From: Desulforhopalus sp.
Lineage (GTDB): Bacteria > Desulfobacterota > Desulfobulbia > Desulfobulbales > Desulfocapsaceae
Assembly: GCA_024710585.1 (NCBI GenBank)
Contig: JANJUM010000275.1
Coordinates: 1 to 33,542, forward strand
DNA length: 33,542 bases
Direction: 5' to 3'
Below the pieces are notes generated by a model. It had not been told where the DNA came from, searched no databases, and saw only the letters and a program-made list of their open reading frames with translations. The translations under genes and the position numbers were made by a program. How positions within the stretch are numbered: the stretch's first letter is position 1; every line of letters starts with the position of its first letter. Below are positions 3,270-13,348 of the stretch, in pieces.

Positions 3270-3297
3270 TTGACATATGGCAATGTATATGTATAAT
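3270..3297 (+). promoter_or_regulatory. sigma-70 promoter of the lexA-imuB-dnaE2 cassette
   Basis: A perfect -35 TTGACA (3270-3275) and a perfect -10 TATAAT (3292-3297) are separated by 16 bp, in an AT-rich island 40 bp before the lexA start. The expected transcription start is near 3304. A consensus promoter this strong would need tight repression, which fits the overlapping dyad. Confidence 0.85.
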
Positions 3298-3325
3298 GAC
3301 CGTAAACGGACAATGTACATATACA
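3284..3325 (+). promoter_or_regulatory. putative LexA operator: 42-bp dyad
   Basis: TGTATATGTA (3284-3293) and TACATATACA (3316-3325) are exact reverse complements. The midpoint, 3304.5, coincides with the centre of a second dyad, CCGTAAACGG (3300-3309). Counting the partial matches between them, 17 of 21 positions are symmetric. The left arm overlaps the -10 box and the centre falls at the expected +1. It resembles neither the E. coli LexA box nor the Geobacter-type box. That LexA binds it is inferred from position and symmetry. Confidence 0.65.
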
Positions 3326-3335
3326 AAGAGCCATC

Positions 3336-3977
3336 ATGGAACTGACCGCACGACAACAGCAGTTGTTCTCCTATCTCCGTCAGCGGCTGGAAGGGGAGGG
3401 GCGCGTCCCCAGCCTGCGCCAGGCCGCCGCCGACCTTGGCGTCAGCCATACCGCGGTGGCCCAGCTGATGCAGCAGCTGGAGAAGAAGGGCATGGTCGCC
3501 CGCCAGGGCCGCTATGGCCGCAGCATCCGCCTGTTGCCGGGCGGGGGGGAGCCGATGCCCTGCCGGACGGGGCGCGAGGTGCCGTTGGTCGGCCGCATCG
3601 CCGCCGGGCTGCCGATGTACGCCCAGCAGGAGTGGCAGGAGACCATCGTCGTCGACCCGTTGATGTTTCCCGGCGACAACCTCTTCGCCCTGCGCGTCAA
3701 GGGGCAGTCGATGCGCGACGCCGGCATTCTCGACGGCGACGTGGTGCTCTGCGAGCCTCGGCAGTACGCGGAAAACGGCGAGATCGTCGTCGCCCTGGTG
3801 AAAAACGAGGAGGCGACGGTGAAGCGTTTCTTTCTCTACAGCGACCATATCGAGCTGCGCCCGGCCAACGAGGCCTACGAGGTGATGTGCTACCCCTTCG
3901 GCGAGGTGCTGGTGCAGGGCAAGGTGGTCGGGGTTCTCCGGGGGCGCCATGCCGAGTTCGACGGCAAGCGGCTGTGA
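3336..3977 (+). CDS. lexA: LexA-type self-cleaving repressor
   Basis: A 213-residue cytoplasmic repressor of the SOS response. Residues 1-65 form a winged helix: 'LTARQQQLFSYLRQRL', then 'VPSLRQAAADLGVSHTAVAQLMQQLEKKG', the LexA DNA-binding helices. The rest is an S24 peptidase domain with the Ala90-Gly91 cleavage site in 'GRIAAGLP', nucleophile Ser125 in 'VKGQSM' and general-base Lys163 in 'ATVKRF', so RecA-stimulated self-cleavage should be intact. Length is normal for LexA. The recognition helix reads SHTAVAQLMQQLEK rather than the E. coli type, in line with a different operator. It is the first gene of a cassette with an ImuB-like protein and DnaE2, so it probably represses that cassette and itself; whether it is also the genome-wide LexA or a second copy cannot be told here. 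Confidence 0.92.
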   Translation: MELTARQQQLFSYLRQRLEGEGRVPSLRQAAADLGVSHTAVAQLMQQLEKKGMVARQGRYGRSIRLLPGGGEPMPCRTGREVPLVGRIAAGLPMYAQQEWQETIVVDPLMFPGDNLFALRVKGQSMRDAGILDGDVVLCEPRQYAENGEIVVALVKNEEATVKRFFLYSDHIELRPANEAYEVMCYPFGEVLVQGKVVGVLRGRHAEFDGKRL

Positions 3978-4836
3978 GCCCGCCGCGCCGGCGCGGGTCG
4001 AGGTGCGGAGCGGGGCGGCAGGTGGCCGCCCCGCCGCCCTGTGCCCGGTCATGGTCGGCACCTGCGGCTACTCCTACAGCGAGTGGATCGACGGTGGCTT
4101 CTACCCGCCGGGGACGAAGAGTGCCGCCATGCTCGGCCTCTACGGGCGCGCCTTCTCGGTGGTCGAGCTCAACTACACCTGGTACCAGATGGCGCGGGCC
4201 GAGTCCCTGGCGCGCATGGTCGCCGCCGCGCCCTCCCATCTGCGTTTCGCCGCCAAGCTGACCCGCACCATGACCCATGAGCGGGACGAGCGCTGGCAGC
4301 AGCAGCTGGCCCTCTATCGCCAGGGCATCGCCCCTCTCGGGGAGCGGCTGGTGGCGGTGCTGGTGCAGCTGCCGCCGGAGTTCGAGCGCAGCGTCGCCAA
4401 CCGCACCTACCTCGCCGCCCTGCTCGACGGTCTCGAGGGGTTGCCGACGGCGGTGGAGTTCCGGCACCGTTCCTGGGCGGTGGACCCGGTGTTCGCCGAG
4501 CTCTCGCGCCGCCGCGTCACCCTGGTGACGGTGGATGCGCCGGCCCTGCCCAGCCTCTTCCCGCCCCTCGACGTGGTCACCAACCCCGACCTCTTCTATG
4601 CCCGCTTCCATGGCCGCAACCTCGAGGGCTGGCGTTCCGGCAACATGCAGAAAAAGTTCAACTACGACTACAGCGCCGAGGAACTCGATGCCTGGTGTGC
4701 CGCCCACATGCCGGCCTTGAGCCGTGGCGCCGCCTCGGGGATCATCGTCTTCAACAACCACGTGCGCGCCCAGGCGCCGCGCAACGGGGCGCAGATGGCC
4801 CTCTGCCTGGCCCGCTACTCGGGAGCCGGGCGATGA
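3949..4836 (+). CDS. DUF72 (YecE-like) family protein
   Basis: A 295-residue DUF72 protein; the family has a TIM-barrel fold and no settled biochemical role. Signature segments are 'VGTCGYSYSEWIDGGFYPPG' (residues 35-54), 'FSVVELNYTWYQM', 'FAAKLTRTMTH', 'AVEFRHRSW', 'YARFHGRNLEGW' and the C-terminal 'IIVFNNHVRAQAPRNGAQM'. ATG 3949 overlaps the lexA end by 29 bases behind a GGGGG stretch. The conserved domain begins near Met 4051, so the first ~34 residues may not be translated. Its TGA overlaps the next start codon (ATGA, 4833-4836), indicating translational coupling to the ImuB-like gene. It occupies the place where imuA lies in canonical cassettes, which suggests, without proof, a role in damage tolerance. 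Confidence 0.87.
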   Translation: MPSSTASGCEPAAPARVEVRSGAAGGRPAALCPVMVGTCGYSYSEWIDGGFYPPGTKSAAMLGLYGRAFSVVELNYTWYQMARAESLARMVAAAPSHLRFAAKLTRTMTHERDERWQQQLALYRQGIAPLGERLVAVLVQLPPEFERSVANRTYLAALLDGLEGLPTAVEFRHRSWAVDPVFAELSRRRVTLVTVDAPALPSLFPPLDVVTNPDLFYARFHGRNLEGWRSGNMQKKFNYDYSAEELDAWCAAHMPALSRGAASGIIVFNNHVRAQAPRNGAQMALCLARYSGAGR

Positions 4837-6038
4837 GCGCGCTCTTTCCCGGCACCCGGGAGCGGGCGGTGCTGCACTTCAACGTCGCCGACTTCGCGGT
4901 TGCCGTCGAGCGGGTGGCCGACAGCTCCCTGCGCCGCCGGCCGCTGCTTGTCGCCCCCCTGGGAGCGGCGCGGGCGGTGGTCTACGACATGAGTGAGGAG
5001 GCTTATGGCGAGGGGGTGCGCAAGGGCATGCCCCTGCGCCGGGCGACGCGGCTCTGCCCAGGGGCGGCGCTGCTGCCGCCGCGCCCCGAGCTCTACGCCC
5101 GGGCGATGCGCTCCTTCTTCCGCGAGTTGCAGGGCTACTCGCCGCTGATCGAGGCGGGGCGGGTCGACGGACATTTCTTCGTCGACGTCACCGGCACCCA
5201 CCGTCTGCACGGGCCGGCGGTGGATATCGGCTGGCGGGTACGGCGCCGCACCCGCGCCGCCCTCGGCATCGACCCCATCTGGACCCTGGGCAGCGGCAAA
5301 GTGGTGGCCAAGGTGGCGTCGCGGCTGGTCAAGCCGGTAGGCGAGTATATCGTTGCCCCGGGGGAGGAGGAGGCCTTCCTCGCCCCCCTGCCGGTCGCCC
5401 TGCTGCCCGGCCTGGCGACGCGGGAGCGGCAGCTGCTCGAGGCCTACTCGCTGACCACCGTCGGCGCCCTGGCCAGGTTGTCGAGGCAGCAGCTGCTGGT
5501 AGCCTTCGGTCCGCGCTGCCACTATCTCCACGCGGTCAGCCGCGGCATCGACGACGAGCCCTTGCGCCCCGCCGGAAAGGGGCCGGAGACCCTCTCGTTC
5601 CAGCATCTCTTTGCCGACGACAGCAATGACCGCGACGAGGTGCGCACGCGGCTCTTCGCCCTCGCCGACGAGGCCGGGGCGGCCCTGCGCGGCCGCAAAC
5701 TGGTCTGTCGCCGCCTCACCTTGCGCCTTGGCTACGCCGACGGCAGCGAGGCGAGCCGGCAGGCCCTGTGCCGCACCGGCGCCGCCGGCGATCTCCACCT
5801 GCGCCAGCTGGCCGTGGAGGCCCTGGAGCGTGCCTGGACACGGCGCACCCGGCTGCGCGCCTGCACCCTCCTCTGCGACCGACTCCAGCCCCGCTCGCCG
5901 CAGCTGCCGCTCTTTCCCGAGTGCGCCGAAGGGCCGCGGCGCGCGCAGCGGCTGCAGGGGGCCATCGACACCCTGCGCCAGCGCTATCGCCAGGGACTGG
6001 TGGGGATCGGCCGCCAGGGGCTGGCCGGCGGGGGGTGA
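4833..6038 (+). CDS. ImuB-like Y-family DNA polymerase homologue, catalytic acids lost
   Basis: A 401-residue Y-family (DinB/UmuC/ImuB) protein. The N-terminal catalytic strand, HxDxDxFFAxVE in active enzymes, reads 'HFNVADFAVAVE' (15-26), so the metal-binding Asp is Asn17. The second acidic motif (SIDEAYLD in DinB) reads 'VDGHFFVD' (111-118), without the Asp-Glu pair. Palm, fingers and little-finger regions are otherwise recognisable ('YGEGVRKGMPLRRATRLCP', 'LGSGKVVAKVASRLVKP', 'LTTVGALARLSRQQLLVAFG'). 'QLPLF' at 357-361 matches the beta-clamp-binding pentapeptide QL(S/D)LF. Such features are typical of ImuB, a non-catalytic adaptor that brings DnaE2 to the clamp. It is shorter than classical ImuB and lacks a long C-terminal tail. 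The start is fixed by the ATGA overlap with the DUF72 gene, and dnaE2 begins 4 bases after the stop. Confidence 0.85.
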   Translation: MSALFPGTRERAVLHFNVADFAVAVERVADSSLRRRPLLVAPLGAARAVVYDMSEEAYGEGVRKGMPLRRATRLCPGAALLPPRPELYARAMRSFFRELQGYSPLIEAGRVDGHFFVDVTGTHRLHGPAVDIGWRVRRRTRAALGIDPIWTLGSGKVVAKVASRLVKPVGEYIVAPGEEEAFLAPLPVALLPGLATRERQLLEAYSLTTVGALARLSRQQLLVAFGPRCHYLHAVSRGIDDEPLRPAGKGPETLSFQHLFADDSNDRDEVRTRLFALADEAGAALRGRKLVCRRLTLRLGYADGSEASRQALCRTGAAGDLHLRQLAVEALERAWTRRTRLRACTLLCDRLQPRSPQLPLFPECAEGPRRAQRLQGAIDTLRQRYRQGLVGIGRQGLAGGG

Positions 6039-6041
6039 AGG

Positions 6042-9026
6042 GTGTTCCCCCTGCGCGTCCGCTCCCATTACTCGTTGCTCCAGGGGACCGCCTCGCCCCG
6101 CCAGCTCTGCCGGCGGGCGCGGCAACTCGGCTACCCCGGGCTGGCCCTGACCGACCGCGACAACCTCTGCGGCCTGTGGGCCTTTCTGCGCGCCTGCGGC
6201 GAGGAGGGGCTGCGGCCGGTGGTCGGGGCGGAGGTGTCGCAGCCGGGCTGTGAGCGGGTGGTGGCCTGCCTGGTGCGCGACGACGAGGGCTATGCCAACC
6301 TCTGCCGCCTCCTCACCCGCCGCCACTGCCATCCCGGCTTCGACCTGGCGGCCGAGGTGCCGCCCCTCGCCGCCGGGCTCTTCCTTCTCTGCCGCGATCA
6401 CGAACTCCTCGCCCACTATCGCCGTCTGGGCCTCTCGGTGGCCGCCGACCTCGGCCCCCTGCCCGGCGCCGCCGCCCGCCAGCTGCGCCTCTTCGCGCAG
6501 CGCCACGACATCGCCGTGGTCGCCACCGCCGACAGCGACCTCGCCGAGGAGGGCGAGGCCCCGCTGGCCGCGCTGCTGGCCGCAATCCGCCACCGTCTGA
6601 CCATCGGCGAGGCGCGGCGTCGCCTCGCGCCGCAGGCCCTGGCCGACGCGACCAGCTACCGTCGCAGCCTCGCCATCTGGCCTGAGGCGGTGGCGGAGAC
6701 GGAGAAGATCGCCGCCCTGTGCCCCTTCGCCGGCCCCGGCTTCGGCGTGGTCATGCCGCCGTGGAGGGGCGGCGACAGCGCCCAGGCCACCCCGGCCCTG
6801 CGCCACGCCGCCTATGCCGGGGCGCGGCGGCGTTATGGCGACGACCTCGGCGAGCCGGTGGTGGAGCGGCTCGAGCACGAGCTGCGCACCATCGCCGCCA
6901 TGGGCTTTTCCTCCTACTTCCTGGTGGTGCGCGATATCGTCCATCGCCTGGCGCCGGACGGCAGCCGCCGCCGCCGGCCGGTGTGCGGGCGCGGCTCCGG
7001 GGCGGCCTCGCTGGTCGCCTACTGCCTGGAGATCACCAACGTCTGCCCGATCAAATACAACCTCTACTTCGAGCGTTTCCTCAATCCTGGTCGCACCGAC
7101 CCGCCGGATATCGACATCGACTTCGCCTGGGACGAGCGCGACGAGGTGCTGGCCGAGGTCTTCGCCGACTTCCCTGGCCATGCCGCCATGGTCTGCAATC
7201 ATGTCTTCTTCCAGCCGCGCATGGCCATCCGCGAGACCGCCAAGGCCTATGGCCTGCCCGGGCACGAGATCGGCGAGCTGACCCGGCGCATCCCCTGGAT
7301 GCACGGTGGCAGGGGGCTCGGCGAGAGCCTCGCCGCCCTGCCGACTTTCAGGGATCAGGACCTCTCGCCGCCCTGGCCGGAGGTGCTCCTCCTGGCCGAG
7401 AAGCTGCTCGGCGTGCCGCGCCACCTCTCGGTGCATCCCGGCGGGGTGGTGATCACCCCGCGGCCGATCGACGCCTACGCGCCGCTGCAGCGGGCCGCCA
7501 AGGGGGTGCCGGTCCTGCAGTGGGAAAAGGACGGCGTCGAGGAGGCCGGGCTGGTCAAGATCGACCTCCTCGGTAACCGCAGCCTCGGGGTGATCCGCGA
7601 CGCCATCGCCGCCATCGCCCCGCAGCGGCGCCGCTTCGCCGTCGACACCTGGCAGCCCGAGGACGACGCCGCCACCCGCCTCACCGTCGCCCGGGGGGAG
7701 ACCATGGGCTGCTTCTATATCGAGAGCCCGGCGATGCGCCTGCTGGAGAAGAAGGCGGGCAGCGGCGACTTCGAGCAGCTGGTCATCCAGTCGTCGATCA
7801 TCCGCCCGGCGGCCAACGAGTTCGTGCGCGAGTACGTGCGCCGCCTGCGCGGCGGCGCCTGGCAGCCCTTCTGCCCGCAGCAGGGCGATATCCTCGACGA
7901 GACCTTCGGCCTCATGGTCTACCAGGAGGACGTCACCAAGGTGGCGGTGGCGCTGGCCGGCTTCACCCCGGCTGAGGGCGACGGCCTGCGCAAGGTCATG
8001 GCCAAGAAGGACAAGGCGCGCCGGCTGGCGCAGTACCGGGAAATGTTCTTTGCCGGCTGCGCCAGGCGCCAGGTGGCGGAGACAGCCGCCGCCGAGATGT
8101 GGCGGATGATCGAGAGCTTCGACGGCTACTCCTTCTGCAAGCCGCACTCGGCTTCCTACGCCCGGGTGTCGTTCCAGGCGGCCTATCTCAAGCGGCACTA
8201 CCCGGCGGAGTTCATGGCGGCGGTGATCGCCAACGGCGGCGGCTACTACTCCACCTTCGCCTACGTCTCCGAGGCGCGGCGGCTCGGTCTGGCCATCCTC
8301 CCCCCGGATGTCCGTCGCAGCGGCCGCGCCTGGTCGGCGGAGGAGAGGGCGCTGCGCGTCGGGTTGAGCGCGGTCGGCGGGCTCTCCGCGGCCTTCGTCG
8401 ACGGCCTCCTCGCCGCCCGTGGGGAGCGCCCCTTCGCCGATGTGGCCGACTTCCTGCACCGCACACGGCCGGCGGAAAACGAGGCCGAGGCGCTCATCCA
8501 CTGCGGCGCCCTCGACGGCCTTGCCGCCGGCGCCAACCGCGCCATGCAGCTCTGGCAGTGGGCGAGCTACCGGCGGCAGTGTGACGACGGCCGCCGCCCG
8601 GCCCTTTTTGCCCCGCGCCTGCCGCCGCCCCCGCCGCTGCCCGCGCCCGACCCGCTCGCGGTGGCGCGGCGCGAGTTCGCCGTGCTCGGCTTTCTCTGCG
8701 ACGGCCACCCCCTGCGCTTCCTCGAGTGGCCGCGGGGTGGGCTGGAGACGGTGGCCGAGCTGCCGGCCCATGTCGGGCGGCGGGTTCGTCTCGCCGTATG
8801 GCTGCTCACCGGCAAGCTGGTGTCGACGCGGGGCGGCGAGACCATGGAGTTCCTCACCTTCGAGGACGAGAGCGGCCAGGTCGAGACGACCTTCTTCCCC
8901 GAGACCTACCGTCGCCATGCCCATCTCCTCCGATCAGGGCGCGGCTACCTCCTCACTGGCCTGGTGGAGGAGGACTACGGCGCCCTCACCGTTACCGTCG
9001 ATGCCCTGCGACCGCTGGGGCGATGA
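6042..9026 (+). CDS. dnaE2: DnaE2-type error-prone DNA polymerase III alpha subunit
   Basis: A 994-residue C-family polymerase, shorter than replicative DnaE (about 1160). The order is a PHP domain (1-~70 onward), the catalytic palm with 'PDIDIDF' at 355-361 (Asp358, Asp360) and 'KIDLLGN' (Asp508), fingers and helix-hairpin-helix, and an OB fold near 915-985 ('VRLAVWLLTGKLV', 'FLTFEDESGQVETTFFP'). The polymerase acids are present. The PHP start reads 'RVRSHYSLLQGTAS', keeping one of the two His of the HxHS metal motif, so PHP metal chemistry is doubtful. The start is GTG 6042, 4 bases after the ImuB-like stop. Members of this group carry out translesion synthesis with ImuB; the cassette position supports induction by DNA damage through LexA. 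Confidence 0.92.
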   Translation: MFPLRVRSHYSLLQGTASPRQLCRRARQLGYPGLALTDRDNLCGLWAFLRACGEEGLRPVVGAEVSQPGCERVVACLVRDDEGYANLCRLLTRRHCHPGFDLAAEVPPLAAGLFLLCRDHELLAHYRRLGLSVAADLGPLPGAAARQLRLFAQRHDIAVVATADSDLAEEGEAPLAALLAAIRHRLTIGEARRRLAPQALADATSYRRSLAIWPEAVAETEKIAALCPFAGPGFGVVMPPWRGGDSAQATPALRHAAYAGARRRYGDDLGEPVVERLEHELRTIAAMGFSSYFLVVRDIVHRLAPDGSRRRRPVCGRGSGAASLVAYCLEITNVCPIKYNLYFERFLNPGRTDPPDIDIDFAWDERDEVLAEVFADFPGHAAMVCNHVFFQPRMAIRETAKAYGLPGHEIGELTRRIPWMHGGRGLGESLAALPTFRDQDLSPPWPEVLLLAEKLLGVPRHLSVHPGGVVITPRPIDAYAPLQRAAKGVPVLQWEKDGVEEAGLVKIDLLGNRSLGVIRDAIAAIAPQRRRFAVDTWQPEDDAATRLTVARGETMGCFYIESPAMRLLEKKAGSGDFEQLVIQSSIIRPAANEFVREYVRRLRGGAWQPFCPQQGDILDETFGLMVYQEDVTKVAVALAGFTPAEGDGLRKVMAKKDKARRLAQYREMFFAGCARRQVAETAAAEMWRMIESFDGYSFCKPHSASYARVSFQAAYLKRHYPAEFMAAVIANGGGYYSTFAYVSEARRLGLAILPPDVRRSGRAWSAEERALRVGLSAVGGLSAAFVDGLLAARGERPFADVADFLHRTRPAENEAEALIHCGALDGLAAGANRAMQLWQWASYRRQCDDGRRPALFAPRLPPPPPLPAPDPLAVARREFAVLGFLCDGHPLRFLEWPRGGLETVAELPAHVGRRVRLAVWLLTGKLVSTRGGETMEFLTFEDESGQVETTFFPETYRRHAHLLRSGRGYLLTGLVEEDYGALTVTVDALRPLGR

Positions 9027-9034
9027 AATCTTGT

Positions 9035-9062
9035 TTGAAAATGTCACGAAACAGCGTATAAA
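9035..9062 (+). promoter_or_regulatory. sigma-70-like promoter of the receiver gene
   Basis: -35 TTGAAA (9035-9040) and -10 TATAAA (9057-9062) with 16 bp spacing, beginning 9 bases after the dnaE2 stop in an AT-rich pocket. Transcription would start near 9069, giving a leader of about 30 nt. This suggests the receiver gene is not solely dependent on the LexA cassette. Confidence 0.6.
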
Positions 9063-9099
9063 GCAAGCTGCCGAGTCTCGGCCGGTAGAACGACAGCGG

Positions 9100-9498
9100 A
9101 TGCAGAAATCACAGCGGATTCTCATAATCGATGACGAACCTTCGGCCCTCGATCTGCTGCGGCGGATCTTCGAGGGCGAGGGCTATGAGGTGCTCCTCGC
9201 CAGCAATGGCGTCGAGGGGGTCGGCCTGTTCCGGCAGGACCCCTGCGACCTGGTGATCACCGATATCGTCATGCCGGGCAAGGATGGCCTGCAGACCATC
9301 CTCGACCTGCGCGAGGATTTTCCCGACCTCCCCTTCGTCGCCATTTCCGGCGGCGGAGCCATCTCCAAGGAGCGCTATCTCACTGTTGCCGGCTATCTCG
9401 ACAGGGTGGTCACCCTGGCCAAACCCTTCACCGTTGACGAAATCGTCGATGCGGTGGAGAACCTGCTCGCCGAGGGGGCGGAGGGGCGCGACCGATAA
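9100..9498 (+). CDS. single-domain response regulator (receiver only)
   Basis: A 132-residue CheY-like receiver with no output domain. It shows the acidic pair in 'ILIIDDEPSA' (Asp11-Asp12), phosphoacceptor Asp55 in 'LVITDIVMPGKDG', Ser83 in 'VAISGGG' at the switch position, and 'LAKPF' with Lys108. It should be phosphorylated by a histidine kinase that is not encoded next to it; partner and output are unknown. ATG 9100 is the first start in frame after the preceding gene; the ribosome site is weak. The acyl-CoA synthetase gene follows after 44 bases, probably on the same transcript. Confidence 0.88.
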   Translation: MQKSQRILIIDDEPSALDLLRRIFEGEGYEVLLASNGVEGVGLFRQDPCDLVITDIVMPGKDGLQTILDLREDFPDLPFVAISGGGAISKERYLTVAGYLDRVVTLAKPFTVDEIVDAVENLLAEGAEGRDR

Positions 9499-9542
9499 CG
9501 GCAAGGTCATCCCGGGCAACCGGTGCAGATGAGAGGTGGAGA

Positions 9543-11240
9543 ATGGATGCGGTCGCCAAGGTCGCCATGACCCTGAACTATGTCCTTGACGCCAGTTGCT
9601 CCAAGTATCGCGATACCCCGGCGATCGGCATGGCTATGGAGACGCCGCTCTCCTACGGTGAGTTCCGCGAGCGCGTCCTCGCCCTGGCCGCCCGTTTTCT
9701 CTCCGAGGGCATCGTCAAGGGTGACCGCGTCGCCCTACTCGGGGAAAATTCCCCCAACTGGGGCACCGCCTACCTGGCCATCGTGCGCATTGGCGCGATC
9801 GCCGTGCCCATCCTCCCCGACCTGCCGGAGAGCGATGTGCACCACATTCTCGGCGAGATGAAGGTCAAGGCCCTGTTCGTCACCCAGAAACAGATCGAGA
9901 AGATCTACGAGCTGCGCGCCGAGATGTATGGCCGCATCGTCACCCTCGACGACGCCGCCGCCGACCACGCCGGGCCGGAGGTGGTCCCCATGTCGCGCTA
10001 TGCCGCCGAGGCCCTCGAGCGCTTCCGGCAGGACGCCGAGCCCGCGATCCTTCCCGAGGTGGCCGAGGACGACCCGGCCTCGATCCTCTACACCTCCGGC
10101 ACCTCGGGCTTCTCCAAGGCGGTGGTGCTCTCCCACAAGAATCTCACCGCCAACGCCTACGCCGCCTCGAGCCTGATGGACATCAGGCCTGGCACGACAT
10201 GGTTGTCGATTCTCCCCATGTCGCATACCTACGAGTTCACCTGCGGCTTCATCCTGCCGCTGCTCCTCGGCGGGCGCATCGCCTACGCTGGCAAGAGCCC
10301 GACCCCGGCCATCCTGCAGAAGCTCTGCGAGCATGAAAAGCCGAAGGTCATCTTCGCCGTGCCCCTGGTGCTGGAGAAGATCTACAAGAAGCGCGTCCTG
10401 CCGCAGCTCGAGAAGAGCCGGGTGCTGGGCATGCTGTGCAAGTTCGGGCCGACCAGGAAGCTCATCTTCCGCAAGATCGGCGCCAAGCTGATCGCCTTCT
10501 TCGGTGGCCAGCTGCAGCTCATGGGTGTGGGCGGCGCCGCCCTCAACCCGGAGGTGGAGCGCTTTCTCCACGAAGCACGCTTTCCCTACCTCATCGGCTA
10601 CGGCATGACCGAGTCCGCGCCGCTCATCGCCGGCGGGCCGTTCGGCGACCGCACCATCGCCATCGGCTCCACCGGCAAACCGATCCCCGGGATGCAGGTG
10701 AAGATCGTCGACCCCGACCCGGCCACCGGCATCGGCGAGATCACCGTCTGCGGCGCCAACGTCATGCGCGGCTACCATAACGACCCGGAGGCCACCGCGG
10801 CGGTGCTCTCCGCCGACGGCTGGCTGTCCACCGGCGACCTCGGCATTTTCGACAAGGCCGGCAACCTCCATGTGCGCGGGCGCTCCAAGAACGTCATCGT
10901 CCTTCCCAGCGGCGAGAACGTCTACCCCGAGGCCATCGAACACAGGATCAACACCTACCCGTGGGTCACCGAGAGCCTGGTGCTGGAGAACCATGGCCAG
11001 GTGGAGGCCTGGGTCTACCCCGACTACGAGTTCGTCGACGAGCAGACCGCCGGCGGCTCGCGCATAGACCGCCGCACCTATATCGAAGGCCTGTTGGAAA
11101 CCCTGCGCAGCGAGGTCAACGAGCAGTTGCCCAAGGCCTCGCGGCTGGCCCGCGTCTTCGAGCGCCGCGACCCCTTCATCAAGACCGCCACCCACAAGAT
11201 CAAGCGCTATCTCTATCACGGCACCGCCATGGTTGGCTAG
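9543..11240 (+). CDS. AMP-dependent synthetase/ligase (long-chain acyl-CoA synthetase-like)
   Basis: A 565-residue adenylate-forming enzyme, predicted to activate a carboxylic acid (probably a fatty acid) with ATP and then CoA in the cytoplasm. The core motifs are in order: the P-loop 'ILYTSGTSGFSKAVVLSHKN' near 180-200, 'GYGMTESAPL' (A5), 'DGWLSTGDLG' (A7), 'GRSKNVIVLPSGENVYP' (A8) and a C-terminal 'TATHKIKRYLY' with the A10 lysine. A long helical insert with 'RKLIFRKIGAKLIAFFGGQL' is typical of the bacterial long-chain (FadD15-like) group. An AGGTGG ribosome site precedes ATG 9543. Substrate chain length cannot be read from the sequence. A molybdopterin oxidoreductase starts 80 bases downstream. 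Confidence 0.88.
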   Translation: MDAVAKVAMTLNYVLDASCSKYRDTPAIGMAMETPLSYGEFRERVLALAARFLSEGIVKGDRVALLGENSPNWGTAYLAIVRIGAIAVPILPDLPESDVHHILGEMKVKALFVTQKQIEKIYELRAEMYGRIVTLDDAAADHAGPEVVPMSRYAAEALERFRQDAEPAILPEVAEDDPASILYTSGTSGFSKAVVLSHKNLTANAYAASSLMDIRPGTTWLSILPMSHTYEFTCGFILPLLLGGRIAYAGKSPTPAILQKLCEHEKPKVIFAVPLVLEKIYKKRVLPQLEKSRVLGMLCKFGPTRKLIFRKIGAKLIAFFGGQLQLMGVGGAALNPEVERFLHEARFPYLIGYGMTESAPLIAGGPFGDRTIAIGSTGKPIPGMQVKIVDPDPATGIGEITVCGANVMRGYHNDPEATAAVLSADGWLSTGDLGIFDKAGNLHVRGRSKNVIVLPSGENVYPEAIEHRINTYPWVTESLVLENHGQVEAWVYPDYEFVDEQTAGGSRIDRRTYIEGLLETLRSEVNEQLPKASRLARVFERRDPFIKTATHKIKRYLYHGTAMVG

Positions 11241-11320
11241 AGGGCGGGCCTTTCCTCGATAGAGCAGGCAGTTCCCTTACCCTTCCCCGGTTTCCGGGGG
11301 AGTATCGCGGAGGTTCGTCC

Positions 11321-13348
11321 ATGTTAAGCCTGCATAAGACCATCTGCCCCCTCGATTGCCCCGATAGCTGCGGCCTGATCGCCGTGGTCGAAGACGGGCG
11401 GGTCACCGAGCTGCGCGGCGACCGCGAGCATCCGGTGACCCGGGGCGTCATCTGCCGCAAGATGCGGCGCTATCCGGAGCGGCTCTACGGCCCGGAGCGG
11501 GTCCTCCACCCGCAGCTGCGCGTTGGCAAAAAGGGCGAGGGCCTGTTCCGCCGCATCTCCTGGGAGGAGGCCTATGACGTCATCGCCAAGCGATTCGGCG
11601 AGATCATTGACCGCCACGGCAGCGAGGCCATCCTTCCCTATGCCTACGCCGGCAACATGGGCATGGCCAACCGCTTCGCCGGCTTCCCCTTCTTTCACCG
11701 TTTGGGCGCCTCGCGCCTCGACCAGACCATCTGCTCCGCCGCCGCCAGCGCCGGCTGGGGGCTGCAGTGCGGTGACATTCCCGGTTGCCCGCCGGAAAAC
11801 GCCGCCCAGGCGGAGCTGATTGTCGCCTGGGGCATCAACATCAAGGTCAGCAACTGCCATTTCTGGCCCCATGTGGCGGCGGCCCGCCGCAACGGCGGCC
11901 GGCTGCTGGTCATCGATCCCTACCGCAACGACACGGCGCGCTCCGCCGACCACCATGTGGCGGTGCTGCCGGGCGGTGACCCGGCCCTGGCCCTGGGGGT
12001 GCTCAAGGTGCTCGTCGACGAGGGGCTGGTCGATCAGGATACCCTGAAGCGAGAAACCGAGGGCTTCGCGGCCATGGCAGAGGTGCTCGCCGACCTGCAG
12101 TGGTCGCAGCTCGAAAGGGAGAGCGGGGTGAGCAGGCAGGCGATCAGCGAGCTGGCAGCCCTGCTGGCCGCCGCCCCGCGCACCTTCGTGCGCATCGGCA
12201 TCGGCCTCAGCCGTCACAGCCGCGGCGGTATGGCGGTGCGGCTCATCGCTGCCCTGGCCGGCGCCCTCGGCCTCTTCGACGGCGGGCCCGGCCGTGGCGT
12301 GCTCCTCTCTTCCGGGGCCTTTCCGGGCGGCCGCGACAGGCTCAGCTGGCCATCGCTGGCGGCGCGGCCGACCCGCCTCATCAACATGATTCATCTCGGC
12401 CATGCCCTGACCACCCTAGACCCGCCGCTCAAGGGCCTCTTCGTCTTCAACGCCAACCCGGCCAGCGCCAATCCCGACGGCAGCGCGGTGCGCCGCGGCC
12501 TGTGCCGCGACGACCTCTTCACCGTTGTGCACGAGCAGGTGATGAGCGCCACCGCCCGCTACGCCGACCTGCTGCTGCCGGCCACCACCTTCCTGGAAAA
12601 CCTCGATCTCTACACCGCCTACGGCCATTTCTACATGGGTGTGGCCAGGCCGGTCATCCCGCCCCTCGGCGAGGCGAAGAGCAACTTCCAGCTTTTCGCC
12701 GAGCTGGCGGCGCGCATGGGCTTCGACGACCCGCCCTTTCGCCACAGCTGCGAGGAGCGTATCGTCGATTTTCTCCGCAACCTTGGTGGCCTGCCGCCGG
12801 GCATCGACCTGGGGCGGGTGTTGGCCGGGGAACTGGTCCACTCCACCCGCAGCCATGGCGATGGCCGGGTGCTGCGCGAGAGCGGCGGTGGCGGGTTCTC
12901 CTTCGTCGCCAGCGGTGGGGCGGGCCCTTCCGTGCCCTGCCTGACGCCTGCCGGCGAAGCGGCGGACCCCGACCTTCTGGCGCGCTATCCCCTGCGCCTC
13001 ATCGCCCCGCCGCACCCCGACCTGCTCAACAGCACCTTCGGTGAACGCTATGCGGGGCGCTGCGGCGAGGTCTTCGTCCATCCCGACGACGCCCGGCGCT
13101 GGCAGGTGGCGGAGGGGGAACAGGTCGAACTCGTCAACCACCGCGGGAGAGCGAGCCGGGTGGTGCGGATCAGCGACGCCACTCGCCCCGGGGTACTCGT
13201 CGCCGAGGGTATTTATTGGCCGACGGAACAGTCGCCGGGAATCAACGATCTGACCTCGCAGAAGGCTGCCGACCTCGGTGGCGGCGCCACTTTCCACGAG
13301 ACCCTGGTGGCCTTTGCCGGGCGTGACGCCCTGGCGGCAATTGGCTGA
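11321..13348 (+). CDS. molybdopterin (Mo/W-bisPGD) oxidoreductase, cytoplasmic type
   Basis: A 675-residue member of the DMSO-reductase/formate-dehydrogenase superfamily. Cys9, Cys13, Cys17 and Cys45 ('CPLDCPDSCG' and 'VICRK') should bind one [4Fe-4S] cluster. Cys138 in 'QTICSAAASAGW' is the candidate metal ligand. A C-terminal Molydop_binding domain ('RLIAPPHPDLLNSTF', 'VFVHPDDARRWQVAEGEQV') closes the protein. There is no twin-arginine signal, so it should work in the cytoplasm. No electron-transfer or membrane subunit is encoded beside it, and the substrate is unknown. ATG 11321 follows a GGAGG and a small CCCCGG-TTT-CCGGGG hairpin (11285-11299). fdhD and mobB elsewhere in the window are cofactor-maturation genes such an enzyme could need. 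Confidence 0.87.
   Translation: MLSLHKTICPLDCPDSCGLIAVVEDGRVTELRGDREHPVTRGVICRKMRRYPERLYGPERVLHPQLRVGKKGEGLFRRISWEEAYDVIAKRFGEIIDRHGSEAILPYAYAGNMGMANRFAGFPFFHRLGASRLDQTICSAAASAGWGLQCGDIPGCPPENAAQAELIVAWGINIKVSNCHFWPHVAAARRNGGRLLVIDPYRNDTARSADHHVAVLPGGDPALALGVLKVLVDEGLVDQDTLKRETEGFAAMAEVLADLQWSQLERESGVSRQAISELAALLAAAPRTFVRIGIGLSRHSRGGMAVRLIAALAGALGLFDGGPGRGVLLSSGAFPGGRDRLSWPSLAARPTRLINMIHLGHALTTLDPPLKGLFVFNANPASANPDGSAVRRGLCRDDLFTVVHEQVMSATARYADLLLPATTFLENLDLYTAYGHFYMGVARPVIPPLGEAKSNFQLFAELAARMGFDDPPFRHSCEERIVDFLRNLGGLPPGIDLGRVLAGELVHSTRSHGDGRVLRESGGGGFSFVASGGAGPSVPCLTPAGEAADPDLLARYPLRLIAPPHPDLLNSTFGERYAGRCGEVFVHPDDARRWQVAEGEQVELVNHRGRASRVVRISDATRPGVLVAEGIYWPTEQSPGINDLTSQKAADLGGGATFHETLVAFAGRDALAAIG

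What the first reader, a model, noticed from the sequence alone, without database searches (positions are those of the whole stretch)
3336..9026. LexA-DUF72-ImuB-like-DnaE2 cassette with no ImuA
Known damage-induced mutagenesis cassettes are lexA-imuA-imuB-dnaE2 or split variants. Here the genes overlap or nearly touch (29-base overlap, ATGA, 4-base gap) and a DUF72 protein replaces the RecA-like ImuA. Its translational coupling to the ImuB-like gene suggests that DUF72, a family without settled function, could belong to translesion synthesis.
Basis: partly seen in the sequence, partly recalled or inferred. Interest (0 to 1): 0.68.

Follow-up and report, generated by a model that had tools for sequence, protein, structure and literature searches.

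The report
Unknown-function protein in DNA-damage mutagenesis operon
In a group of sulfate-reducing-type bacteria, an operon that probably makes an error-prone DNA polymerase after DNA damage has a conserved extra gene for a protein of unknown function (DUF72), which gives that common protein family a concrete pathway in which its role can be tested.

Summary
In detail: lexA-DUF72-inactive Y-family polymerase-dnaE2 at 3336-9026, tightly coupled. It is not peculiar to this genome: all 34 genome-contig loci found with the DUF72 protein have lexA directly upstream. Of 146 genomes sampled from the order, at least 33 show the cassette: 25 with DUF72, 1 with a deleted DUF72, 4 without, 3 cut by contig ends. 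A Desulfosarcina plasmid carries it. The 50 cassette DUF72 form one clade against 24 others. That DUF72 replaces ImuA is not supported: no ImuA candidate turned up in the 146 genomes, and cassettes without DUF72 lack ImuA too. ImuA-less DnaE2B-iPolY-RecA systems are described (PMC6511836, PMC12926913), and the Y-family protein fits them. New, as far as searched, is DUF72 as a member. It is a TIM barrel; outside DUF72 its fold neighbours include sugar isomerases, UVDE and endonuclease IV. Best reading: a LexA-controlled, RecA-linked mutasome with a DNA-lesion-binding or -processing accessory. That role of DUF72 is inferred, and three of seven proposed DNA-contact residues of TM1631 are not kept.

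The parts
3270..3297 (+). sigma-70-type promoter read by eye: TTGACA 3270-3275, TATAAT 3292-3297, spacer 16
   Evidence: sequence; not tested for expression
3282..3297 (+). LexA operator-like site 1 (AATGTATATGTATAAT), overlapping the -10 box
   Evidence: 2 mismatches to AATGTAYATRTACATT; similar sites in relatives
3312..3327 (+). LexA operator-like site 2 (AATGTACATATACAAA), just before lexA
3336..3977 (+). lexA: A90-G91, S125 and K163 (cleavage site and catalytic pair, assignment recalled) invariant in 19 sequences, the window's included; the only LexA found in the draft genome
3949..4836 (+). DUF72 protein, 295 aa, predicted TIM barrel
4833..6038 (+). inactive Y-family polymerase (iPolY; ImuB-like), 401 aa
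5901..5915 (+). beta-clamp-binding-type motif QLPLF (residues 357-361)
   Evidence: that this is a clamp motif is recalled
5949..6011 (+). RecA-NT-like stretch (residues 373-393), degenerate in this genome (RYRQG where relatives have RFGxG)
   Evidence: read by eye; RecA N-terminus of the same genome
6042..9026 (+). dnaE2-type C-family polymerase, 994 aa, PDIDIDF present (catalytic role recalled), ends after the OB domain

Best explanation
This is a LexA-controlled translesion-synthesis operon of the ImuA-less DnaE2B-iPolY-RecA type, with DUF72 as a lineage-specific extra component. Damage activates RecA, LexA cuts itself and the operon is expressed (inferred). The catalytically dead Y-family protein acts as hub: its QLPLF motif binds the sliding clamp, its RecA-NT-like tail binds RecA in place of ImuA, and it brings in the active DnaE2 polymerase (inferred from described systems). 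DUF72, made in step with the hub by overlapping genes, is most likely a DNA-lesion-binding or lesion-processing TIM-barrel protein that works on the same damaged template (inferred). It is a useful but dispensable addition, most simply gained once and lost several times (tree).
For: Gene order and coupling. Inactive Y-family: the first catalytic Asp is Asn and the Asp-Glu pair Gly-His in the alignment with two intact Y-family proteins; N17, G113, H114 invariant in 18. Clamp-type motif and RecA-NT-like tail, no ImuB-C (by eye). Only RecA-like match to the ImuA profile in the genome reads as RecA. One LexA with intact cleavage residues; upstream of 50 lexA genes the best match to AATGTACATGTACATT is at least 13 of 16 in 35, below 12 in 11, and 29 have two separate sites of at least 12. 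DUF72 under purifying selection in 7 close pairs, dN/dS 0.08-0.22; median identity to the window 66% against 64% LexA, 63% DnaE2, 56% iPolY, in loci chosen by DUF72 similarity. Cassette DUF72 one clade, 50 of 50, quick tree. 12 of the 15 residues of the binding site proposed in TM1631 (PMC3828134) are identical and invariant in 20 cassette DUF72. Fold: 1vpq Z 28.3; UVDE 4gle Z 13.6, endonuclease IV 5zhz Z 12.4. DUF72 also reported enriched near polB2 operons, another TLS system with lexA (PMC11791011, section read).
Against: DUF72 is lost or deleted in some cassettes that otherwise stay: of 33 order genomes 4 lack it and 1 has a 109-aa in-frame remnant (L048); 6 of 15 phylum genomes with a Y-family match over 400 bits lack it. 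Of seven residues that the TM1631-DNA simulation of PMC3828134 puts in contact with DNA, four are kept (S10, Y48, H79, Q114) and three are not: Q50 is Met, W53 mostly Ala, R54 Glu or Asp, a change of charge. Many sugar-isomerase-type TIM barrels score like UVDE, so the fold does not point to DNA alone; TM1631 has no metals (PMC3828134). In this genome the RecA-NT-like stretch is degenerate. Of 20 non-cassette DUF72 neighbourhoods examined, several of them short, 19 show no LexA, Y-family or DnaE2 match, and no listed DUF72 place lay near a listed B-family polymerase in this phylum (compared by eye), so the polB2 link was not reproduced here.
Confidence: 0.53

Rival explanations
1. DUF72 takes over the structural role of ImuA: it binds the iPolY tail and supports DnaE2.
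For: It sits where imuA sits in lexA-imuA-imuB-dnaE2 cassettes and is translationally coupled to the Y-family gene; no ImuA found in the genome.
Against: ImuA is equally absent where DUF72 is absent (L039-L042). DUF72 is a TIM barrel, ImuA RecA-like. A RecA-NT-like tail is seen in iPolY with and without DUF72. Described ImuA-less systems are thought to use RecA (PMC6511836, PMC12926913).
Confidence: 0.08
2. DUF72 is a metabolic or nucleotide-pool enzyme (phosphate-ester or damaged-nucleotide hydrolase or isomerase) co-expressed with the polymerase, without physical contact.
For: The fold neighbours are mostly sugar isomerases and epimerases; the conserved Arg/Lys/Glu pocket was read as a phosphate site in TM1631 (PMC3828134) and is kept here, while three of seven proposed DNA contacts are not.
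Against: The same pocket has been modelled on DNA; linkage to two unrelated TLS systems (here, and polB2 in PMC11791011) fits DNA damage better.
Confidence: 0.27
3. DUF72 is a passenger kept in the operon by linkage, with an unrelated function.
For: Repeated absence, and the non-cassette DUF72 genes looked at sit among unrelated genes.
Against: Conserved through much of an order with purifying selection, on a plasmid as part of the same cassette, and all 9 DUF72 of 370 bits or more in the phylum sample lie beside iPolY.
Confidence: 0.12

Closest known systems
DnaE2B-iPolY-RecA modules (gbDinB2-like; PMC12926913, section 20 and passages read; PMC6511836, section 17 and passages read)
   Same: Inactive Y-family protein with RecA-NT-like tail beside a DnaE2; operons of this kind often with lexA; no ImuA in the genome
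   Different: The sections read name no DUF72, and neither paper is among the 10 that hold the word DUF72
Canonical lexA-imuA-imuB-dnaE2 mutasome
   Same: LexA control, dead Y-family hub with clamp-type motif, DnaE2-type polymerase
   Different: No ImuA found, no ImuB-C region, DnaE2 apart from four ImuA-linked ones in a quick tree
PolB2 operons with lexA, SRAP and DUF72 in the neighbourhood (PMC11791011, one section read)
   Same: DUF72 and lexA near a TLS polymerase
   Different: B-family polymerase with iRadA and PPB2; there DUF72 is 'enriched to some degree', here it is a regular gene of the operon
DUF72 protein TM1631 (1vpq; PMC3828134, passages read; PMC4939058, listing with abstract start seen)
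   Same: Same family and fold; 12 of 15 predicted site residues identical
   Different: TM1631 has no shown function; its Y47 is Trp, Q50 Met, W53 mostly Ala and R54 acidic in the cassette proteins

Membership tests
DnaE2B-iPolY-RecA module | Y-family protein with disrupted active site | tested here: met
   (Asp to Asn, Asp-Glu to Gly-His against L121 and L137). The D112 before Gly-His could be paired with the Asp in another alignment; it is not conserved (N or Q in L033, L034, L036), and the Glu is lost either way
DnaE2B-iPolY-RecA module | RecA-NT motif in the Y-family protein | tested here: inconclusive
   clear by eye in most relatives, degenerate in the window's own protein; no profile test
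DnaE2B-iPolY-RecA module | no ImuA in the genome | tested here: met
   only a RecA and one weak unidentified match; genome 95.8% complete
DnaE2B-iPolY-RecA module | DnaE2 outside the ImuA-linked DnaE2A group | tested here: met
   the 4 ImuA-linked rows are one side of a branch (SH-aLRT 100); quick tree, few ImuA rows, one long branch (L121)
DnaE2B-iPolY-RecA module | physical complex with RecA | not testable with these tools
   no complex prediction offered
ImuA-ImuB-DnaE2 mutasome | ImuA encoded | tested here: not met
ImuA-ImuB-DnaE2 mutasome | ImuB-C region after the RecA-NT motif | tested here: not met
   45 residues from the start of the clamp motif to the end in the window, 142 in the L120 ImuB candidate; the model ends in a helix and a short tail
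DUF72 (PF01904) | score over the curated cut-off, DUF72 fold | tested here: met
   (189.4 against 25.3 bits)
UV-damage endonuclease / endonuclease IV | sequence family match | tested here: not met
   only DUF72 at E up to 0.001
UV-damage endonuclease / endonuclease IV | catalytic metal site | not tested
   PMC3828134 says that the TM1631 structure lacks metals
LexA regulon member | operator bound by LexA and damage induction | tested here: inconclusive
   operator-like sites; no binding or expression data

The most novel reading that the evidence does not exclude
DUF72 is a fourth, catalytic mutasome subunit: a UVDE/endonuclease-IV-like lesion-processing enzyme that recognises or cuts damaged DNA and hands the site to the clamp-bound iPolY-DnaE2 polymerase; DUF72 proteins in general would then be DNA-damage enzymes recruited at least twice by unrelated translesion systems.
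Probability: 0.22. Interest if true: 0.8.

Novelty: new variant of a known kind. Interest (0 to 1): 0.58.

Why it matters
DUF72 is a widespread family with solved structures and no settled function. A conserved place inside a LexA-linked polymerase operon turns that open question into simple genetics and biochemistry: delete the gene, measure damage-induced mutation, test DNA binding. Together with the report of DUF72 near polB2 operons it would tie the family to DNA-damage tolerance from two directions. It also shows which part of the first idea to drop: on the simplest reading of the tree, DUF72 joined a cassette that already had no ImuA.

Tried and rejected
ImuA hidden elsewhere: NF033429 gives only sub-cut-off matches in the own genome and 2 of 394 phylum genomes at 1e-20; at that threshold it rang in none of the 14 controls, Caulobacter included, which has an imuA as I recall, so it misses some ImuA types. 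A 4-sequence ImuA profile (A5) matched 136 of 146 order genomes, one place each but for G040 and G054, whose second matches are weak or fragments; 10 genomes had no match at all. I saw no candidate ImuA. RecA was recognised by eye only in the own genome, elsewhere by frame length; the tool scored at most 17 candidates a genome.

DUF72 beside B-family polymerases in this phylum: DUF72 places (listing cut off near 104 bits) and PF00136 places (365 genomes) share no close pair; PF00136 is not PolB2-specific.

DUF72 in viral contigs: 4 loci at 27-28% identity, no cassette genes recognised beside them. Plasmids: 155 records match DUF72; I looked at 5. Rhodanobacter, Ensifer, Paraburkholderia and Rhizobium show no TLS genes in the stretch, Desulfosarcina has the cassette.

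The third operator-like site in the genome (C248:997) lies before an ORF that I read by eye as sulfate adenylyltransferase; the reversed control pattern gave 7 hits against 3, so the pattern is not enriched genome-wide and this site was taken as chance.

Site mapping first came out one column off and was redone. Rows dropped: L007 left out of A4 (stop in my coordinates); A1 used 20 of 35 cassette DUF72; both trees left out L057 (copy of L024) and L108, L110, L111 (copies of the window), the DUF72 tree also L048 (deleted); the own genome's second DUF72 (L002) was meant for that tree but was not picked up, and the weaker DUF72 of the order were not fetched. L048 counts as DUF72-bearing in the DnaE2 tree. 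The operator count left out L057, L061, L071. The and 76 trees are quick ones and both printed long-branch warnings.
Full report
Check of the observation. The lexA/DUF72 overlap is 29 bases, DUF72/Y-family share ATGA, and the last gap is 3 bases, not 4. Pfam and NCBIfam agree on the families. The genome is a draft of 276 contigs, 95.8% complete; relatives named in genome contigs are mostly Desulfobulbaceae and kin.

How widespread. A scan of genome contigs with the DUF72 protein gave 34 loci; 34 have LexA directly upstream, 33 the Y-family gene, 30 the dnaE2 (the misses are contig ends). This search favours close relatives. In 146 genomes sampled from the order I count at least 33 with the cassette, by eye from the listings (the dnaE2 listing is capped, so fragments may be missed) and the stretches: 25 with DUF72 (24 shown next to the Y-family or dnaE2 gene; 1, G030, only behind lexA at a contig end), 1 with an in-frame deleted DUF72 of 109 aa (G104), 4 without (G144, G083, G065, G088), 3 cut by contig ends (G034, G035, G103). 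In two of the four without DUF72 (L039, L041) no LexA was found in the stretch either. In 394 genomes of the phylum, 15 have a Y-family match over 400 bits; 9 of these have DUF72 beside it, and these are the only 9 DUF72 of 370 bits or more. The 6 without are five of one family code (f26) and G267; in G433 the contig starts inside the Y-family gene, on its dnaE2 side. Four of the nine lie outside the order (G240, G427, G371, G291). A mobilizable plasmid of Desulfosarcina ovata carries lexA-DUF72-Y-family-dnaE2.

What the Y-family protein is. Aligned with two intact Y-family proteins, the first catalytic Asp is Asn and the Asp-Glu pair is Gly-His; in 18 cassette proteins N17, G113 and H114 are invariant. 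Most keep a QxxLF clamp-type motif (variants in L049, L052, L089, L093, L094, L095) and then a stretch like the RecA N-terminus (L005: AMDTLRSRFGHGVIGVG; the RecA of this genome: NAINQIQRQFGKGSIMRLG), and end there or soon after, without the longer ImuB-C region. In the window's own protein the FG of that stretch is YR. This matches the inactive PolY of the DnaE2B-iPolY-RecA modules of PMC12926913 (section 20 read) and the ImuA-less operons of PMC6511836 (section 17 read).

ImuA. An ImuA profile from four plasmid genes hits one place in the own genome, a 366-aa protein that reads as RecA. Over the order sample, 136 of 146 genomes have a match, one each but for two genomes with weak second matches. 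So no ImuA was seen with or without DUF72. Of ten more distant loci fetched (L079, L099-L107), nine have LexA upstream of the Y-family gene, eight a dnaE2 match after it and none DUF72; I saw no RecA-like ORF between lexA and the Y-family gene, by eye, although L100 and L102 have another ORF there. These genomes were checked for ImuA only with NF033429. In the DnaE2 tree (67 rows, quick method) the label DUF72 against none needs at least 5 changes, contig-cut and ImuA-linked rows not counted; all 42 DUF72 rows lie in one branch of 54 rows (SH-aLRT 90), which also holds 8 rows without it and 4 cut ones. One gain and about four losses is the simplest reading; the count itself cannot tell gain from loss. 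On that reading DUF72 was added to a cassette that already had no ImuA.

Regulation. The genome has one LexA over the family cut-off. Upstream of 50 lexA genes of the cassette type the best match to the palindrome AATGTACATGTACATT is at least 13 of 16 in 35, 12 in 4 and lower in 11 (L033, L034, L035, L040, L042, L047, L050, L058, L091, L092, L097); 29 have two separate sites of at least 12 (some upstream ends were set from the alignment, not a checked start codon). In the window the two sites are 3282-3297, across the -10 box, and 3312-3327. With up to 3 mismatches the whole genome has one more site, judged chance; the reversed control pattern gave 7. LexA's cleavage site and catalytic residues are invariant. 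No site fell on the recA contig at this stringency.

DUF72. It matches PF01904 and, in the PDB, TM1631 and EF0366. The model (mean pLDDT 86.5) aligns with 1vpq at Z 28.3; outside the family come MbnB (Z 15.8), sugar epimerases and isomerases, UVDE (Z 13.6) and endonuclease IV (Z 12.4). Of 15 site residues listed for TM1631 in PMC3828134 (passages read), 12 are identical and invariant in 20 cassette proteins; S7 is C or S, E205 is Q or R, R207 is K or Q. Of seven residues that the same paper's simulation puts on DNA, S10, Y48, H79 and Q114 are kept, Q50, W53 and R54 are not. In 7 close pairs dN/dS is 0.08-0.22. The 50 cassette DUF72 fall on one side of a branch (SH-aLRT 100, quick tree) against 24 others, 20 from the phylum and 4 from plasmids. 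Of 20 neighbourhoods of other DUF72 genes in the phylum, 19 show no cassette gene; L137 has a lexA-Y-family pair 1.7 kb upstream with other genes between.

Literature. Ten papers in the library hold the whole word DUF72; with LexA only PMC11791011, which reports DUF72 enriched to some degree near polB2 in archaea and bacteria (section read). Searches for DUF72 with ImuB or DnaE2 by word start returned one paper, on Rv0004, which is not in the whole-word list. I found no report of DUF72 in a dnaE2 operon in these searches; subscription papers are not covered, and PMC1326238 on the cassette's dispersal is not held.

Verdict. The operon and the DUF72 link are real and conserved; ImuA-less dnaE2 operons are known; DUF72 as a member is, as far as searched, unreported. 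Shown: order, conservation, dead Y-family site, no ImuA found, clade, operator-like sites. Inferred: induction, RecA binding, lesion handling by DUF72.

Noticed in passing
L112 (NZ_AP021877.1), 6292-12091: The whole cassette sits on a mobilizable (MOBQ) plasmid of Desulfosarcina ovata, a few kb from traA and an IS200/IS605 transposase, which suggests transfer.
   Followed up: partly
L048, 3040-3369: DUF72 is cut down in frame to 109 aa (its two ends) while the tight junctions on both sides stay; either a real loss or a draft-assembly error.
   Followed up: no
window 5949-6011: The RecA-NT-like stretch of this genome's iPolY has YR where most relatives have FG.
   Followed up: no
L137, 1618-5979: A lexA-Y-family pair with intact catalytic residues lies 1.7 kb from a non-cassette DUF72, with other genes between.
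   Followed up: no
L033 and L036: 492 and 370 bases lie between DUF72 and the Y-family gene in one sub-lineage; content not examined.
   Followed up: no
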